A DNA stretch of 64,000 bases, taken from the NCBI GenBank assembly GCA_020248265.1, contig JADCHX010000017.1, positions 1 through 64,000 on the forward strand, read 5' to 3'. The translations under genes were made by a program, and so were the position numbers. Under the pieces are notes generated by a model. The model saw only the letters and a program-made list of their open reading frames with translations. It did no database searches and was not told the DNA's origin. Positions 1-9,911 of the stretch are shown piece by piece (the first letter of the stretch is position 1; each line of letters begins with the position of its first letter). This stretch comes from Rhodocyclaceae bacterium (GTDB lineage: Bacteria > Pseudomonadota > Gammaproteobacteria > Burkholderiales > CAIKXV01).

Positions 1-188
1 GGTTCCTCTCTCACCACAGCACCTGCGCGGATCGAGGCGAGGGGCTACCTGGCGGAGCGAGGTAAAGGAGGAGCCTCCGGGCGCGGCAGCGCCCGGAGGC
101 GGGGGACACGAGCGGAGCCAGGTAGCCCCTCGCCTCGATCCTGCACAGGACAAAGAACCAGGTAGCCCCTCGCCTCGATCCTGCACAG
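1..188 (+). repeat. Structured dispersed repeat, copy A
   Basis: Near-identical (about 5 differences in 188 bases) to 7594-7781. It contains a long palindrome. The outer arms 29-53 and 117-141 are perfectly complementary over 25 bases. Inside them lie invariant block L (GGAGCGAGGTAAAGGAGGAG, 54-73), a perfect 11-bp GC hairpin with a 4-base loop (74-99) and invariant block R (CGGGGGACACGAGCGGA, 100-116). The right arm plus its tail (118-148) is repeated directly at 158-188, a 40-base period. The copy ends about 6 bases before the complement of the homospermidine synthase stop codon (195-197), so it forms that gene's immediate 3' flank. The left edge of homology lies at or beyond the window start. 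It could be a non-autonomous mobile element, a structured RNA or a terminator; no protein-coding potential is seen. Confidence 0.85.
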
Positions 189-3482: not shown

Positions 3483-6400
3483 TCAGTTACCGACTTCGAT
3501 CTTCTGCAGCGTGCCGCCGAGGCTGAAATTGGCGCGTATCGGGTTACTGTTTCCGGTGGTCAACTGGGCGTTGATGCGTCCGGTCAGCGCGCTCGTGGCA
3601 TCGATTTCGGCTGTACCGGTCGCGATCATCGGCCCCGAAGCCAGCCGCATCTGGCGCAGCGAATAGCTGCTGCCGGACATGGCGAACACCCCTGTCCACT
3701 CCTCGAAGGTGGTGCGACCGCCCCGGTTCGCCGGGTCGAGCAACAGCCGTGCGAGATCGATGCCGCCCAGCCAGCCGCGCCGGATGGTGAATGCGGTGGA
3801 GACCTGGGGCGAATCGAGGAGGCGGCGCAGCGCCGGGGCCTGCAGCGAGAACTTCATGTTCCCGTCCATCAGGCCGCTCGCGGTGGCGTTGACCGTCATC
3901 GCCGGCAGGAACTTCGCGGCATCGAGCCGGCGCAGGAGGAATTCGCCGCTGGCGGTGGCGACGGGTGCATCCGCACCCCAGGCGACCTTGAGCGAGCCCT
4001 GTGCCGTGCCGCCATACAGTTCGGCATCGACCTCGCTGGCGACCAGCCCGCTTCGCGTGACGATGCCGTTCACCTTCAACTGGTCGATGGTTGCCGAACT
4101 GCCCGGCAGCGGCTGCCAGTCGGTCGCCGACAGGCGCAAGGCGATGTCCTCCGTGGCACGTGTCAGGACGATCGATACCCTGCGGCTGTAGACGAGTATG
4201 CTGGCGCTGCTGAACCTGCCCGTGGCGTCCCACACGACCTCGACTTCGGCCTGTGGCAGTTCGATGTCGGGCATGGCCACGCGCAGGTTGCGGATCGAAA
4301 TGCGTTCGAAGCCGAGCGTATCCCTGCCGTCCATGCCGACGACATCGGGCAGTTTCGGCAGGAATTCCGGAGGCATCGTGACGGTACTGAGCTGCACCGA
4401 CTCGAACGTGAGCGGGCCCGCGAACAGCGACGACAGCGTCGGCACCGCATGTACCGACGCGATGGTCGCGCTGGCTGGACCGGTACCGACGACCACGTCG
4501 GTGAGCCGGATGTTGGGGCGTGGGATCAGCGACGCGTGCATCGACTTGATGGCCACCTTTTCCCCGAGTGCGGCACTCATCGCCTGTTCGACGCGCCCCA
4601 GGTAGGTGTTGAACGGAAGCACTTCGAACAGCCCGACTACGACCGCTGCCAGCAGTACCAGGGCTGTGGCATAGATCTTCCAGCGGGATTTCGATGGCTG
4701 TTCAGCGCGGGCTTTCGCTCGTGCCAGCGCCTGAGCTTCCGCCTCCGAGAGCTTGCGCTGACGCTCGCGCTCGCGTTCGAACTTCTCGCGCTCGGCGCGG
4801 GCCCGGTTGGCGATCTCGGCGGCTTCACGCACGCGGCGCTTCGATTCTTCTTCGGCAAGCAGCCGGCGCTGCTCTTCTTCCTTCGCGCGCTTCTCCTCCA
4901 TCTTGAGGATGTCGGTCATCTGCCGCCGGGCGAAGTCCTCGGCCCGATCGCGTGCTTCGGCGTCGCGGATCGAGCGCATCTGCTCTTCGGGCGTACTCGT
5001 CCCGCCACGCTCGCCGCCCGCGCCTCCGGAGGCCGGGGCCGCTGCCTGTTCGGCGGTGAGGCGGGCCATCTGATCTTCGAGTTCGCGGGTGAAGCGCTCC
5101 TGTTCGAGGCGCGACCGGGCCTCGGCATCCTCGATTGCCTGTCGCGCCGCACTGGCCAGCACGTCTGCATCGACCATCGGCGACGGAGCCGCTGCAGGCG
5201 GCGTGGCCGGGGGCGGTACATATGACGGTGCCGGTGCCGGTGCCGGTGCCGCCGTCGGTGTCGGCGTAGGCGTTGGCGTCGGTGTCGGTGTCGGTGTCGG
5301 CCGCGCAGTCGGTTTCAGTCCGGCGAGCGGCTGCCATTCGCTATCGGCCGGCGTCTGCGCCGCGACCTTTTCGCGGGGTTCGCGGTCGGTGGAAGACAGC
5401 GCGCGCATCCTCGCCTCGGCTTCTTCGCGCAGCGACCGTTCGGCTTCGATCAGCGCCTGTGTCTGTTCGCGCGCGCGCCTTTCCGCATCGGCGTGCGCCT
5501 GCGCACGTCGCTCGACTTCTTCGCGTGCGGTGCGTTCGGCGGCCGCCATCGCTTCGGCCTGTTCGCGGGCTCGGCGCTCGGCCTGCGCCTCCTCCCGTGC
5601 AGCCTGCTCGGCCAGCGCGCGCTCGCCGGCTTCCGCACGCAACCGGTCTTCCATTGCCTGCGCCTCGCGCGCCCGGGCGAGCGCATCCTGCCGGGCCTGC
5701 GCTTCCACGCTGGCCTTGGCTTCGACCTGCTGGCGCAGCTCGCGCTCGGCTTCCGCGCGCTGTTCGGCTGCTTCGCGGGCCCGGCGCTCGGCCTCCGCCT
5801 GCGCGAGGGCCCCGGCCCGGACGAGTGTGGTTGATTCGTCGCGCGCCTTTGCCTCTGCGATGGCCTTCTGCTTGCGTTCCGCGTCGAGCCGCGCGAGGGC
5901 GGCTATCCTGGCCTTCAGTCCGGCCTCCATCCGGCGCACGGCCGCGAGGCGAGCGGCCGCGTTGGTCTCGGCCTTGCGTACCGACTCGGCCCGTGCCCGT
6001 GCCTCGGCTTCAGCGCGCGCAAGCGCATCGGCCCGCGCACGCACCTCGGCCTCGGCGCGGTCGAGCGCACCCTGGCGCGCGACGATCTCCTCGTCGGACT
6101 GGTTTCGTACGACCTTCTCGGCCTTCAGGCGCGCCAGCGCCGCCGCGTTGACCTTGGCGTCGGCATCGGCGCGCGCCTTGGCCTCGGTTTCGGCGCGGAC
6201 CCTCGCTTCAGCCTGCACCTTGGCCTTGCGCTCGGCCTCCACCCGCTGGCGCGCTTCCTCCTCGGCCTGCTGTTCCTTCTTCGTCTCGGCACGCAGTTTG
6301 TCGAGGAGTTCCGGGGAGGTGAAATCGAGATCGAGCGGATCTGCGACCGGCACCACCTCGGCGATGATCAGGCCGCGTTCGACCAGTTCGCCCAGGGTTG

Positions 6401-6623
6401 CGCCGAGAGCGGCGTCGTCCATTCCGGCGGCCGTGCGCAGGTCGACGGCGCTGATCTGTTCGCCTGCCAACTCGTATACCTTGAGTACGACCGGGCTCAG
6501 GATGCCGGGGACGGGTCGCGCAGTGCCGTTGCGCCGAAGGACCGTTGCCTCGCCCAGCAGCGGGATTCCCGGGGCGATCGTCGGACCCGAAGGGGGCGCA
6601 GGCGGGGTTGTCGGGGTCGTCAT
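3483..6623 (-). CDS. AsmA-like protein with long N-terminal coiled coil
   Basis: 1046 aa. Residues about 10-95 look like a small helical, winged-helix-like segment. Residues 100-430 are an almost uninterrupted Ala/Glu/Arg heptad-like coiled coil. About 436-470 is a Pro-Thr dipeptide repeat followed by Ala-Pro. A second Arg/Glu-rich coiled coil runs from about 495 to 640. One transmembrane segment follows (about 648-668, ATALVLLAAVVVGLFEV). The C-terminal 375 residues resemble the AsmA/DUF3971 beta-strand fold of envelope lipid-transport proteins. AsmA relatives normally carry their TM at the extreme N-terminus with almost nothing in the cytoplasm, so a 640-residue cytoplasmic coiled coil is unusual. 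I chose ATG 6623, 8 bases after the upstream gene's stop, implying co-transcription with the carbonic anhydrase. The function of the coiled coil is unknown. Confidence 0.75.
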   Translation of the reverse strand: MTTPTTPPAPPSGPTIAPGIPLLGEATVLRRNGTARPVPGILSPVVLKVYELAGEQISAVDLRTAAGMDDAALGATLGELVERGLIIAEVVPVADPLDLDFTSPELLDKLRAETKKEQQAEEEARQRVEAERKAKVQAEARVRAETEAKARADADAKVNAAALARLKAEKVVRNQSDEEIVARQGALDRAEAEVRARADALARAEAEARARAESVRKAETNAAARLAAVRRMEAGLKARIAALARLDAERKQKAIAEAKARDESTTLVRAGALAQAEAERRAREAAEQRAEAERELRQQVEAKASVEAQARQDALARAREAQAMEDRLRAEAGERALAEQAAREEAQAERRAREQAEAMAAAERTAREEVERRAQAHADAERRAREQTQALIEAERSLREEAEARMRALSSTDREPREKVAAQTPADSEWQPLAGLKPTARPTPTPTPTPTPTPTPTAAPAPAPAPSYVPPPATPPAAAPSPMVDADVLASAARQAIEDAEARSRLEQERFTRELEDQMARLTAEQAAAPASGGAGGERGGTSTPEEQMRSIRDAEARDRAEDFARRQMTDILKMEEKRAKEEEQRRLLAEEESKRRVREAAEIANRARAEREKFERERERQRKLSEAEAQALARAKARAEQPSKSRWKIYATALVLLAAVVVGLFEVLPFNTYLGRVEQAMSAALGEKVAIKSMHASLIPRPNIRLTDVVVGTGPASATIASVHAVPTLSSLFAGPLTFESVQLSTVTMPPEFLPKLPDVVGMDGRDTLGFERISIRNLRVAMPDIELPQAEVEVVWDATGRFSSASILVYSRRVSIVLTRATEDIALRLSATDWQPLPGSSATIDQLKVNGIVTRSGLVASEVDAELYGGTAQGSLKVAWGADAPVATASGEFLLRRLDAAKFLPAMTVNATASGLMDGNMKFSLQAPALRRLLDSPQVSTAFTIRRGWLGGIDLARLLLDPANRGGRTTFEEWTGVFAMSGSSYSLRQMRLASGPMIATGTAEIDATSALTGRINAQLTTGNSNPIRANFSLGGTLQKIEVGN

Positions 6624-6631
6624 CGCGCGGC

Positions 6632-7162
6632 TCAGTCGGCGGTTCCGTCTGCGGCGAAGCCTGCACGGTACTGCCGCACACGCTCGACGTAATGATCCGC
6701 GTTGTGTCCGAGGTGCTCGATCTCCTCGGGCGTGAGGTGGCGGACGACCCGCCCTGGCGTTCCGAGGATGAGCACGCCGTCGGGGTAAGTCTTGCCCTCC
6801 GGGATCAGCGTGCCGGCACCCACCAGGCAGTTGCGCCCGATCACTGCATGGTTCATCACCACGCTTCGGATTCCTACGAGGCTGCCGTCGCCGATCGTGC
6901 ACCCGTGCAGCATCACCATGTGTCCGACGCTCACCCGCCGGCCGAGCGTGAGCCGGATGCCAGCATCGGTATGCAGCACGCAGCCGTCCTGCACGTTGGA
7001 GGCTTCGCCGATCGTGATGAGGTCGCTGTCGCCGCGCACGATCGAACCGAACCATACCGATGACTGGTCTTTCAGCACGACGCTGCCGATCACCGTCGCA
7101 TTGGCGGCGACGAAAGCGTTGCCTTCCAGCGTTACTTGGCGATCACCCAGGCGGTAGAGCAT
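6632..7162 (-). CDS. Gamma-class carbonic anhydrase family protein (YrdA-like)
   Basis: 176 aa, left-handed beta-helix protein built of hexapeptide repeats. The three likely metal-binding histidines of the family are visible: H64 (VLHTD), H81 and H86 (GHMVMLHG). RGDSD at about residues 43-47 is also typical. Relatives bind zinc or iron and are called gamma carbonic anhydrases, but many YrdA/PaaY-type members have weak or different activity, so the substrate is uncertain. The start ATG 7162 has a GAGGG about 7 bases upstream; an in-frame upstream start at 7198 is less likely. First gene of a probable two-gene unit with the AsmA-like gene. The repeat-rich region lies immediately upstream. Confidence 0.85.
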   Translation of the reverse strand: MLYRLGDRQVTLEGNAFVAANATVIGSVVLKDQSSVWFGSIVRGDSDLITIGEASNVQDGCVLHTDAGIRLTLGRRVSVGHMVMLHGCTIGDGSLVGIRSVVMNHAVIGRNCLVGAGTLIPEGKTYPDGVLILGTPGRVVRHLTPEEIEHLGHNADHYVERVRQYRAGFAADGTAD

Positions 7163-7305
7163 TTGACACCCTCTGACATCGGTGGAACGGGCGCCCACAG
7201 ACGGCCGGATGCAATCCCCTGGAGGTTGCGTCCGGCGTGCCGAAGGCTACCGGGCCATAGGATAACCCGAGCGAGACGGGCCCGACCATGGCGAATCGCA
7301 CGATG
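7163..7305. other. Gene-free stretch upstream of the carbonic anhydrase gene
   Basis: No credible coding frame. On the minus strand a TATCCT-like -10 lies about 90 bases before the ATG at 7162 and could promote it, with no convincing -35. The rest of the interval to 7787 is repeats, listed separately. Confidence 0.4.
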
Positions 7306-7423
7306 TGGTGCCTTGACACGCGTACCGGGCTGCCGGGCTGTCGTACGATGGTGCCTCGACACGCGCACCGGGCTGCCGGGATCTTCGACGATGGTGCCCG
7401 GACACACGCACCGGGCTGCCGGT
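7306..7423 (+). repeat. Tandem 43-base repeats, three units
   Basis: Units start at 7306, 7349 and 7392, each beginning TGGTGCC and sharing ACCGGGCTGCCGG. The first two are exactly 43 bases long. The third merges into the left outer arm of repeat copy C, so the tandem unit contains the arm sequence of the neighbouring structured element. No spacer-repeat regularity of the CRISPR kind is present. Confidence 0.85.
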
Positions 7424-7505
7424 TCCGCTCGTGTCCCCCGGCCCGGCCCTGCTGGCGCAGGCCCGGGCCTCCTCCTTTACCTCGCTCCACCGGCAGCCCG
7501 GTGCG
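7407..7505 (-). repeat. Structured dispersed repeat, copy C (inverted, different arms)
   Basis: Same architecture as copies A and B but on the opposite strand. Block R reads inverted at 7424-7440 and block L inverted at 7469-7488; both are identical to copies A and B. The central hairpin (7441-7468) and outer arms differ completely in sequence yet stay complementary. The arms 7407-7423 and 7489-7505 pair perfectly over 17 bases, and the central stem pairs over about 12 bases with one mismatch. The R-side arm is the one repeated in tandem upstream (7306-7423). Confidence 0.85.
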
Positions 7506-7593
7506 CGCGTCTTCTCCACCACCGTGCCCTGTTGAGAGTGGAGGATGGGCTGGTGCGAAGGCACTGCGGTCTGGTGCCGTCGGACGGTTGCAT
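7506..7593. other. Spacer between repeat copies C and B
   Basis: 88 bases with no gene. It includes short GGTGC/GGTGCG echoes but nothing I can assign. Confidence 0.4.
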
Positions 7594-7781
7594 GGTTCCT
7601 CTCTCACCACAGCACCTGCGCGGATCGAGGCGAGGGGCTACCTGGCGGAGCGAGGTAAAGGAGGAGCCTCCGGGCGCGGCAGCGCCCGGAGGCGGGGGAC
7701 ACGAGCGGAGCCAGGTGGCCCCTTGCCTCGATCCTGCACAGGACCAAGAGCCAGGTGGCCCCTCGCCTCGATCCTGCACAG
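7594..7781 (+). repeat. Structured dispersed repeat, copy B
   Basis: Second copy of the element at 1-188, same strand. Arms 7622-7646 and 7710-7734, block L 7647-7666, hairpin 7667-7692, block R 7693-7709. Relative to copy A the right arm has two substitutions (7717 A to G, 7724 C to T). Both keep G-U pairing if the plus strand is transcribed. The right arm is repeated directly at 7751-7781. The copy ends about 6 bases before the complement of the hppA stop codon (7788-7790), the same spacing as copy A to hss. Confidence 0.87.
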
Positions 7782-7787
7782 CAAGCA

Positions 7788-9911
7788 TCAACGCCCGACC
7801 GGCACCTCGGCCACCACCGTCGTCGCCGGCGCCGCCGCGATCGCTACCGCTGCCGGCGCTTCCACCTTCGCGGCAGGCTGCGTCACCGGCAGCAGCGGCA
7901 CGATCAGCAACGCGACGATGTTGATGATCTTGATCAGCGGATTGACCGCCGGGCCCGCCGTATCCTTGTACGGATCGCCCACCGTGTCGCCCGTGACAGC
8001 CGCCTTGTGCGCATCGGAGCCCTTGCCGCCGTGGTTGCCCTCTTCGATGAACTTCTTGGCGTTGTCCCAGGCCCCGCCGCCGGTGGTCATCGAGATCGCG
8101 ACGAACAGACCGGTGACGATGCAGCCCATCAGCAAGCCGCCGAGCGCGATCGGGCCTAGAAGGAAGCCGACGGCGATCGGCACCAGCACCGGCAGCAGCG
8201 ACGGCACCATCATCTCCTTGATGGCGGACCGGGTCAGCATGTCGACCGCGCGCGAATAGTCGGGCTTGGCCGTACCTTCCATGATGCCGGGGATTTCCTT
8301 GAACTGCCGCCGTACCTCGACCACCACCGAGCTCGCCGAGCGCCCGACCGCCTCCATCGCCATCGCGCCGAACAGGAACGGGATCAGGCCGCCGATGAAC
8401 AGGCCGATGATGACCATCGGGTCGGACAGACTGAACGTGAAGGTCACGCCCGGGTTGGTGCTCTCGAGCTTGTGCGTGTAGTCGGCGAACAGCACCAGCG
8501 CCGCCAGCCCGGCCGAGCCGATCGCATAGCCCTTGGTCACCGCCTTCGTGGTGTTGCCGACCGCGTCCAGCGGATCGGTGATCGCACGCACCGAGGCCGG
8601 CATCTCGGACATCTCGGCGATGCCGCCCGCGTTGTCGGTGATGGGGCCGTACGCATCGAGGGCGACGATCACACCGGTCATCGAGAGCATGGCGGTCGCG
8701 GAGATCGCGATGCCGTACAGACCACCCAGGGCGTAGGCACCCCAGATCGCCAGGCACACCGCCAGCACCGGGGCCGCGGTGGACTTCATCGAGATGCCGA
8801 TGCCGGCGATGATGTTGGTCGCATGCCCGGTGGTGCAGGCCTGGGCGACATGGCGCACCGGCGCATACTCGGTCGCCGTGTAGTACTCGGTGATCACTAC
8901 CATCGCCGCAGTGAGCGCGAGACCGATCAGCGCGCACAGGAACAGCGGCATCGCGCCACCCGCGGCCCCGGACATCATCGACGTGGTGATCGGGTAGAAG
9001 GCGATCGCCGACAGCAGGCCGGCGACGATCACGCCCTTGTACAGCGCGTTCATGATCTTGCCGCCGGGCGAGGCCTTCACGAAGAAGCAGCCGATGATCG
9101 ACGCAACGATCGATGCGCCGCCGAGCACCAGCGGGTAGAGCACCGCGTTCGGGCCGAGGTCGGCTGCGAACATCGCGCCGACCAGCATCGTCGCGATCAC
9201 TGTCACCGCGTAGGTCTCGAACAGGACGGCCGCCATGCCGGCGCAGTCGCCGACGTTGTCGCCGACGTTGTCCGCGATCACGGCGGGGTTGCGCGGATCG
9301 TCTTCGGGGATGCCGGCCTCGACCTTGCCCACGAGGTCGGCGCCGACGTCCGCGCCCTTGGTGAAGATGCCGCCACCGAGGCGTGCGAAGATCGATATGA
9401 GCGAACTGCCGAAGGCCAGCCCGATCATCGCGTTGAGCACCGTCGTGTTCACGTCGTAGCCCATGCCGACGAGGATCGCGAAGTACCCGGCCACCGACAG
9501 CAGGCCCAGCCCGACCACCAGCATGCCGGTGATCGCACCGCCGCGGAACGCCACCGCGAGCGCTTCATCGAGGCCGGTGCGTGCAGCCTCGGCGGTGCGC
9601 ACGTTCGCACGCACCGAGACGTTCATGCCGATGTATCCGGCGGCACCCGAGAACACCGCGCCCACCAGGAAGCCGAAGGCGGTGAGCCAGGACAGCGCCA
9701 GGCCGATCAGCACGAACAGTACCGCCCCGACCGCGGCGATCGTCGTGTACTGCCGGTTCAGGTAGGCTGCCGCCCCGGCCTGCACCGCGGCGGCAATCTC
9801 CCGCATTCGATCATTTCCGGTCGGCTGCTTGAGAATCCATTGGGTCGAAACGATCCCGTACAGGATCGCTGCGATCGAGCATGCCAGTGCAAACCACAAC
9901 GGTGCGGCCAT
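7788..9911 (-). CDS. hppA: Membrane-bound H+-translocating pyrophosphatase, K+-independent type
   Basis: 707 aa, about 16 transmembrane helices. It couples PPi hydrolysis to proton export across the inner membrane. The catalytic loops are present: [16 protein letters not shown] (about 183-198), DNVGDNVGD (214-222) and, near the C-terminus, [17 protein letters not shown] with Lys marks the K+-independent class (K+-dependent enzymes have Ala there). One key position is odd. Family members read CAGMAADLFETY, but here residue 229 is Val (GTC, complement of 9225-9227) in place of the near-invariant Asp that forms the ion gate. A 35-residue Ala/Pro-rich C-terminal tail is longer than usual. It follows pfp by 93 bases, pairing a PPi-driven pump with a PPi-dependent glycolytic enzyme. 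Confidence 0.95.

What the first reader, a model, noticed from the sequence alone, without database searches (positions are those of the whole stretch)
7407..7781. Family of structured repeats with invariant inner blocks and interchangeable self-complementary arms
Copies at 1-188, 7407-7505 (opposite strand) and 7594-7781 all contain block L (20 bases, GGAGCGAGGTAAAGGAGGAG) and block R (17 bases) flanking a GC hairpin. In copy C, the central hairpin and outer arms have wholly different sequences from A/B, yet both stay complementary (17 bp perfect outer, about 12 bp inner; A has 25 bp outer and 11 bp inner). Conserved loops with covarying helices are what selection on a fold looks like. L and R can also be aligned as tandem G-A pairs with G-C pairs between, resembling a structured internal loop. 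It could be a non-autonomous mobile RNA or DNA element, a regulatory RNA, or a recombination site. I do not recognise it as REP, BOX, ERIC, attC or a known riboswitch, but I could not search.
Basis: partly seen in the sequence, partly recalled or inferred. Interest (0 to 1): 0.88.

Follow-up and report, generated by a model that had tools for sequence, protein, structure and literature searches.

The report
Widespread self-complementary intergenic hairpin repeat
A roughly 104-base DNA repeat whose two ends match each other but differ from copy to copy lies between genes in many bacteria of one large group, often as back-to-back pairs; it looks like a scattered mobile hairpin handled by an unknown protein, and it is a natural test of how long hairpins keep their ends matching.

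Summary
Each unit is a hairpin of about 104 nt: 24-bp outer stem, conserved internal loop (blocks L and R), inner hairpin. I parsed 216 distinct copies. Covariation is extreme and reaches into L and R: C-G/T-A, A-T/G-C, and a non-Watson-Crick A/G to G/A swap in which both bases are never G (0 of 216, 24 expected). G-T outnumbers A-C 388 to 63 (327 to 14 in well-paired copies), so one strand is the folded one. Close neighbours are divergent pairs in 55 of 61 cases. A covariance model finds units in 183 of 399 sampled genomes of one Burkholderiales family, up to 112 copies per genome; some Lysobacterales have it too. No Rfam match.

In one genome, arms of copies with identical cores differ by 292 double and 7 single changes, which suggests hairpin template switching. 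Best reading: a BIME/REPIN-like, non-autonomous interspersed element. REP-associated transposases fail the tests made, though the 90-copy genome does have one weak Y1 gene. A Bordetella repeat catalogued earlier (BRE or Bor-1) may be the same family; I could not test that.

The parts
30..140 (+). Unit A (type 1): 5' arm 30-53, L 54-73, inner hairpin 74-99, R 100-116, 3' arm 117-140; an extra copy of the 3' arm at about 158-181. It lies at the contig edge, so any divergent partner would be off the contig.
7400..7512 (-). Unit B (type 2): 5' arm 7489-7512, L 7469-7488, inner hairpin 7441-7468, R 7424-7440, 3' arm 7400-7423.
7306..7399 (-). Two further direct copies of unit B's 3' arm in 43-bp steps (arm parts 7358-7379 and 7315-7336).
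7513..7622 (.). Centre between the divergent units B and C.
7623..7733 (+). Unit C (type 1): 5' arm 7623-7646, L 7647-7666, inner hairpin 7667-7692, R 7693-7709, 3' arm 7710-7733.
7748..7781 (+). Extra copy of unit C's 3' arm, 40 bp downstream.
7788..9911 (-). Neighbouring gene: H+-pyrophosphatase (PF03030); its 3' end faces unit C.
6632..7198 (-). Neighbouring ORF with hexapeptide repeats (PF00132); its 5' end faces the pair.

Best explanation
A family of non-autonomous interspersed DNA elements that works like BIMEs/REPINs. SHOWN: each unit has a fold on one strand (outer stem, conserved internal loop with tandem G-A and GGNGG facing GGNGG, inner hairpin); units occur singly or as divergent doublets of two unlike units; copies are scattered, mainly next to gene 3' ends; sites differ between species of one genus, with whole, half-deleted and absent states. 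INFERRED: an unidentified protein, not a REP-associated Y1 transposase, recognises the single-stranded core and disperses the units. INFERRED with support: the outer-arm match is largely kept by replication template switching. The conserved inner 11 bp of the 3' arm anneals to the 5' arm and is extended outward, so an arm change is copied to the other side, while core and inner stem are held by selection.
For: Fold: 34 of 38 pairs show double changes, 93.7% of cells paired, covariation 0.749 against 0.191 shuffled and at most 0.139 when slid (73 rows, 72 of them drawn from copies that passed a pairing filter). Without that filter, 192 of 216 copies have at least 15 of 20 arm pairs, against 13% of shuffled pairings; one random copy per title (60) gives 19.3 of 22 against 11.6, maximum 12.6 in 2000 permutations. 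Strand: G-T 388, A-C 63 in all 216; 327 and 14 in the 192 with at least 14 of 20 Watson-Crick arm pairs. Doublets: 55 of 61 neighbours divergent, 0 of 55 with the same inner hairpin, mean arm identity 0.41, as in REP doublets (PMC3116915, abstract and first part of section 10 read). Dispersal: 112, 90 and 88 copies in three genomes. Turnover: at the L071 site, of 9 genomes read one has the pair, one a fused remnant and 7 no unit; at the H+-PPase site pair, half-deleted, remnant and absent states. Template switching: 292 double against 7 single changes over 75 copy pairs (37 copies) with identical L, R and inner 12 bp; inner arm nearly fixed, with G-T at position 2 in 60 of 60 true copies. No net strand bias in one genome (11 with, 13 against, one of the 13 a false match).
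Against: No transposition event, target duplication or precise junction was seen; flanks at empty sites are too diverged. No recurrent helper gene stood out beside 155 units. 0 matches to the pattern in viral contigs and no plasmid match for the window copy. Wobble tolerance this strong is also what RNA would show. Single units outside the 90-copy genome lean to sense orientation (17 against 6, p = 0.035). Template switching does not itself explain the strand asymmetry. The two genus members without units also lack Y1 genes, which a RAYT model would predict.
Confidence: 0.5

Rival explanations
1. A structured RNA element at mRNA 3' ends (protein-binding, stabilising or processing signal) acting in sense transcripts; copies spread by ordinary duplication and are kept by selection on the RNA.
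For: G-T far above A-C; RNA energy rules predict the covarying L/R pairs in the three window copies, whereas DNA rules recover only the outermost two pairs in the two copies folded; 3' ends face units 150 times against 85 for 5' ends, about 30 bp away on both sides in 34 convergent placements of one genome; single units outside that genome co-oriented with genes 17 to 6. Hot et al. saw transcripts from a BRE locus (PMC3110155).
Against: No sense bias in the 90-copy genome (11 with, 13 against), and pooled 28 to 19, p = 0.24; divergent doublets put one copy antisense to any reading; loss at orthologous sites; outer arms there change by double steps with few wobbles (5 of 720 cells at positions 13-24).
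Confidence: 0.25
2. It is the family already catalogued in Bordetella as BRE (about 90 bp, 2011) or Bor-1 (93-117 bp, 2008): same thing, function unknown.
For: Hot et al. list overlapping host groups (Comamonadaceae, Rhodocyclaceae) and describe a chromosomal, usually intergenic repeat with 69% GC in Bordetella (PMC3110155: outline with abstract, section 14 and passages read). PMC2267715 (passages read) lists Bor-1 as an intergenic stem-loop family of 117 and 93 bp in two Bordetella species. Units here have 70% GC, median length 104 and a similar host range.
Against: BRE is described as 75-91 bp full length and in tandem with few bases between repeats; here neighbours in direct orientation are 2 of 61. 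The published sequences were not seen.
Confidence: 0.4
3. Classical REP/REPIN moved by a REP-associated Y1 transposase (RAYT).
For: Y1_Tnp genes occur in 14 of 17 positive genomes of the first set and in neither of the two negative genus members; weak single ones also in the 90-copy genome G405 and in G400, and one in G399.
Against: No unit below E = 1 in any of the 23 Y1 neighbourhoods (best 12.1 bits, E 1.4). Y1 not found in genomes with 112, 88, 30, 21 and 20 copies. In the window's own genome one of two Y1 genes is flanked by a different repeat, GGGGTCAGGTCTTG.
Confidence: 0.05
4. Arm covariation is only a mutational footprint: quasipalindromes kept perfect by template switching, with no function of the fold.
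For: 292 double against 7 single arm changes; template switching can create and maintain hairpin stems (PMC8794818, abstract and start of the introduction read).
Against: Template switching restores Watson-Crick pairs and is strand-neutral, yet G-T exceeds A-C 6-fold in all copies and 23-fold in well-paired ones, a wobble at arm position 2 is fixed in one genome, and L/R show non-Watson-Crick reciprocity.
Confidence: 0.15

Closest known systems
REP doublets: BIMEs and REPINs
   Same: Intergenic, many copies, inverted doublets, compensatory changes (PMC3116915, abstract and first part of section 10). Preference for gene 3' ends is recalled for REPs.
   Different: Unit about 104 bp rather than 20-40 bp (PMC3733652, abstract in a search listing); conserved internal loop instead of a conserved GT(A/G)G head (PMC2817692, passages); variable arms; no RAYT partner found.
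BRE, Betaproteobacterial repeat element (Hot et al. 2011, PMC3110155)
   Same: Host groups, mostly intergenic, GC-rich, about 90 bp, mobile-like; its founding locus was an RNAz candidate.
   Different: Reported as direct tandem arrays; no fold, core or doublets described in the parts read; sequence identity not testable here.
Bor-1 stem-loop family (PMC2267715)
   Same: Intergenic, 93-117 bp, predicted stem-loop, many copies.
   Different: Seen only as table rows for two Bordetella species; sequence not seen.
Template-switch-maintained RNA hairpins (PMC8794818)
   Same: Stem changes appear as simultaneous double substitutions.
   Different: That work concerns RNA genes; here sister copies in one genome show it, beside a protected inner segment that could serve as primer.

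Membership tests
REP/REPIN (RAYT-associated) | Inverted doublets of palindromic units in intergenic space | tested here: met
   55 of 61 neighbour pairs divergent; 18 of 155 units inside an ORF called by my heuristic
REP/REPIN (RAYT-associated) | rayt gene flanked by the repeat | tested here: not met
   23 Y1 neighbourhoods, no unit below E = 1; one own-genome gene is flanked by another repeat
REP/REPIN (RAYT-associated) | Presence of a Y1 transposase goes with repeat abundance | tested here: not met
   not found in genomes with 112, 88, 30, 21 and 20 copies; found, weakly, in the one with 90, and in one with 25
REP/REPIN (RAYT-associated) | Conserved GT(A/G)G head at the hairpin foot | tested here: not met
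   positions beyond the arm carry at most 0.28 bit in the 169 copies outside the genus
BRE / Bor-1 | Sequence of the published repeat | not testable with these tools
   no named Bordetella genome or supplement reachable; text seen
BRE / Bor-1 | Direct tandem arrays with few bases between repeats (BRE) | tested here: not met
   direct neighbours 2 of 61 pairs; not tested in Bordetella itself
Rfam families (release 15) | Score above a family's gathering threshold | tested here: not met
   0 in the window and 0 in 18 loci, 138,856 bases
Intrinsic terminator | GC hairpin followed by a run of T on the transcribed strand | tested here: not met
   no T-rich positions after the 3' arm in 169 copies
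Integron attC site | R box core and an integron integrase | not tested
   considered from recall only

The most novel reading that the evidence does not exclude
A new class of strand-specific mobile hairpin, independent of RAYT enzymes. An unknown factor reads a purine-rich internal loop (tandem G-A plus GGNGG facing GGNGG, possibly a two-tetrad G-quadruplex or a run of purine pairs), and the outer arms of each copy are rewritten by self-primed snap-back copying, so the element carries a fixed core on arms that are individual to each copy yet self-complementary.
Probability: 0.3. Interest if true: 0.85.

Novelty: new variant of a known kind. Interest (0 to 1): 0.66.

Why it matters
A structured repeat found in nearly half of the sampled genomes of one large Burkholderiales family, without an Rfam match, implies a common but unnamed binding or mobilising factor. 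It also gives many sister hairpins inside one genome in which double arm substitutions outnumber single ones about 40 to 1, so it can be measured directly whether long stems are kept by selection or by template switching. The A/G to G/A exchange points to a specific non-canonical contact that structure work could resolve.

Tried and rejected
Rfam at gathering and, for 801 bases, at permissive threshold: only below-threshold miRNA matches. Shine-Dalgarno mimicry of AAAGGAGGAG: disfavoured because 46 of 216 copies have GGGGG or GGCGG there. Intrinsic terminator: no T-run. RAYT link: see the membership test. Helper gene beside units: blastp clusters of 259 neighbouring ORFs gave only what I took, by eye, for housekeeping or orthologous genes. 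Replication-strand bias: GC skew on the element strand -0.013 (s.e. 0.005, 61 rows, one false), too weak to use. Insertion ends or target duplications: not recoverable. Chance hits set aside after reading: L014, L024, L044. Arm-swapped copies L057, L064 and L068 lie near contig starts and are probably assembly chimeras; they were not removed from the counts on that ground. Papers: sequence-string searches found only unrelated papers; wording searches.

Selection of rows: of 242 copies found by pattern (up to 3 mismatches each in L and R), 20 were dropped for more than two further core mismatches and 6 as duplicates; copies within 30 nt of a locus end were never counted. The pattern fixes L3, L4, L6, L7, L9, L11, L13-L15, L17-L20, R2, R3 and R5-R9 and limits L8, L10 and L12 to two bases each, so conservation there is partly by construction; L5, L16, R4, R10 and R13 were free. 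72 alignment rows were drawn from 170 of 216 copies that passed a pairing filter. In CAVE-383 I read 60 regions for 90 model matches. One search has 63 matches, two of them false (in L264 and L293); one search dropped one false and one misregistered true copy (L285) and kept the other false one; one search recounts with 60 true copies and changes no conclusion. score at most 9 candidates per genome (lower bounds); one search scores 150. Gene calls are my own GC-position heuristic. The 17-to-6 orientation count is one of several such tests; pooled it is 28 to 19, p = 0.24.

Full report
WHAT IS THERE. A covariance model places them at 30-140 (+), 7400-7512 (-) and 7623-7733 (+) and finds 12 units in the whole 4.55-Mb genome; a search for L alone, up to 3 mismatches, found 13 L blocks, among them five divergent pairs. 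The copies at 1-188 and 7594-7781 are near-identical (type 1); the minus-strand copy has different arms and inner hairpin (type 2). The pair at 7400-7733 lies between the 3' end of an H+-pyrophosphatase gene and the 5' end of a hexapeptide-repeat ORF.

THE FAMILY. Within the genus, 9 of 11 genomes (own included) carry L; the other two, G001 and G005, have none with the model either. Of these, 93 have a Betaproteobacteria order in the lineage table (Burkholderiales 84, Nitrosomonadales 6, Rhodocyclales 3), 3 are Lysobacterales and 24 have no lineage. The model then found units in 17 of 399 genomes drawn across the order, in three families, and in 183 of 399 genomes and 80 of 141 genera of one of those families; both are lower bounds. 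Of 17 genomes scored more deeply, 15 have units, the most being 112 (G192), 90 (Oxalobacteraceae CAVE-383), 88 (Luteimonas terricola) and 30 (Lysobacter A03). No viral contig has the pattern, and the window copy has no plasmid match. Rfam gives nothing.

THE FOLD. From 216 distinct copies (filters are told under Tried and rejected), L and R pair internally: L5-R13 is C-G 160, T-A 43; L8-R10 is A-T 136, G-C 70; L6-L7 with R11-R12 is tandem G-A, replaced in a few copies by Watson-Crick pairs (for example L114 and L139). On 73 aligned rows, 93.7% of cells pair, 34 of 38 pairs have double changes, and the covariation score is 0.749 against 0.191 shuffled and 0.139 at best when slid. These rows were mostly chosen for pairing; without that filter the arms pair in 192 of 216 copies (at least 15 of 20) against 13% of shuffled pairings, and one random copy per title gives 19.3 of 22 against 11.6 permuted. 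The stem fades beyond position 24 and no flank is conserved. Units average 70% GC, with a median length of 104.

ONE STRAND. In the outer arm, G-T outnumbers A-C 388 to 63 in all copies and 327 to 14 in the 192 copies with at least 14 of 20 Watson-Crick pairs. As A-C on one strand is G-T on the other, this shows that the strand carrying L and R is the one whose fold matters. It does not by itself tell RNA from single-stranded DNA.

A NON-CANONICAL CONTACT. L14-15, L17-18, R2-3 and R5-6 are almost always G (209 to 214 of 216 each, partly by construction), giving GGNGG on both sides. The middle bases L16 and R4, left free in every pattern that gathered the 216 copies' loci by L and R together, are A/G in 157 copies and G/A in 29, and never both G (0 of 216, 24.3 expected, Fisher p about 7e-25, which ignores relatedness). 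Both states occur under 10 organism labels, one of them a lumped label, and in CAVE-383 they are 28 and 31 of 60. A purine-purine pair or a two-tetrad G-quadruplex with one-base loops would both fit; which of them is not shown.

DOUBLETS. Of 61 neighbours within 420 bp, 55 are divergent, 4 convergent and 2 direct. In 0 of 55 do the two units share an inner hairpin, and their arms are only 41% identical. Outside the genus the spacing is tight (L to L, middle half 91-98). In the 60 CAVE-383 regions read, only L255 holds two units. The outward repetition of the 3' arm occurs in 13 of 47 genus copies and in 0 of 169 others.

CONTEXT AND TURNOVER. Gene 3' ends face units 150 times, 5' ends 85 times; 18 of 155 units fall inside a called ORF (own gene caller). 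In CAVE-383, 34 of 62 placements are between convergent genes, with medians about 30 bp from both genes; parallel placements are 11 with and 13 against the unit's strand (two of the 62 are false matches, one of them among the 13). Outside CAVE-383, single units lean to the sense direction, 17 to 6; pooled, 28 to 19, p = 0.24. The H+-PPase site has the pair in the window genome and G010, a half-deleted pair in G007, a remnant in G004, and none in G009, G008 and G001; four genomes were not readable there. The L071 site has the pair in G010, a fused remnant in G002, and no unit in the seven others read (G000, G001, G003, G004, G006, G007, G008); G005 and G009 were not read. The L065 site has a pair in G010, a single in G009 and none in G006. 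So sites turn over; gains rather than losses are inferred.

ARMS THAT COPY EACH OTHER. In CAVE-383 the inner arm (1-11) is nearly fixed, with a G-T wobble at position 2 in 60 of 60 copies, while positions 12 to 30 vary from copy to copy (commonest pair in 20 to 52 of 60) and are still Watson-Crick in 1103 of 1140 cells. Palindromic arms run 25-53 bp. Over 75 pairs of copies with identical L, R and inner 12 bp, positions 13-24 differ by 292 double and 7 single changes; the pairs share 37 copies, so these are not independent events. Slow compensatory drift should leave more single-change intermediates. Template switching, in which the 3' arm's inner part anneals to the 5' arm and is extended, predicts a protected inner segment with its old mismatch, near-perfect outer arms and decay at the far end, which is what is seen. 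Template switching is proposed for RNA genes (PMC8794818, abstract and start of the introduction read) and known for quasipalindromes in E. coli (PMC7202029, search listing only).

WHAT MOVES IT. RAYT genes are described as always flanked by two inverted REPs (PMC2817692, passages read). Y1 genes occur in 14 of 17 positive genomes and in neither negative genus member, and, weakly, in the 90-copy genome; but none was found in genomes with 112, 88, 30, 21 and 20 copies, and none of the 23 Y1 neighbourhoods holds a unit below E = 1. One of the two Y1 genes of this genome is flanked by another repeat. No other gene stood out beside units. The mobiliser, if there is one, is unknown.

PRIOR REPORTS. 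BRE (PMC3110155; outline, section 14 and passages read) and Bor-1 (PMC2267715; passages read) are intergenic repeats of similar length from Bordetella, BRE also from Comamonadaceae. I could not see their sequences. If BRE is this family, the element itself is known, while the fold, core covariation, doublets, strand asymmetry and arm copying described here are not in the parts I read.

Noticed in passing
L214 (G000:C24) 1805 and 2862; also L213 and L207: GGGGTCAGGTCTTG repeats lie on both sides of a Y1 transposase gene in the window's own genome: a separate REP-like family with a probable cognate transposase.
   Followed up: partly
L011 about 1370-1420; L313 about 170-270: Further hairpins with GGTCAGGTCTTG...CAAGACCTGACC, one right beside a degenerate copy of the described unit, one at the L071 site of a species without the unit.
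   Followed up: no
L166, L139, L114, L123: Copies in which the tandem G-A of the core is replaced by Watson-Crick pairs (for example GCGAAAT facing ACATTCGC).
   Followed up: partly
L057, L064, L068 near contig starts: Units with one type 1 and one type 2 arm: assembly chimeras or real inversions between the two units of a pair.
   Followed up: no
L160 about 6327-6569: A convergent instead of divergent pair.
   Followed up: no
window 3483-7055 (-): An ORF of 1190 aa without a Pfam match at 1e-10, overlapped by long ORFs on the + strand; the coding strand is unclear.
   Followed up: no
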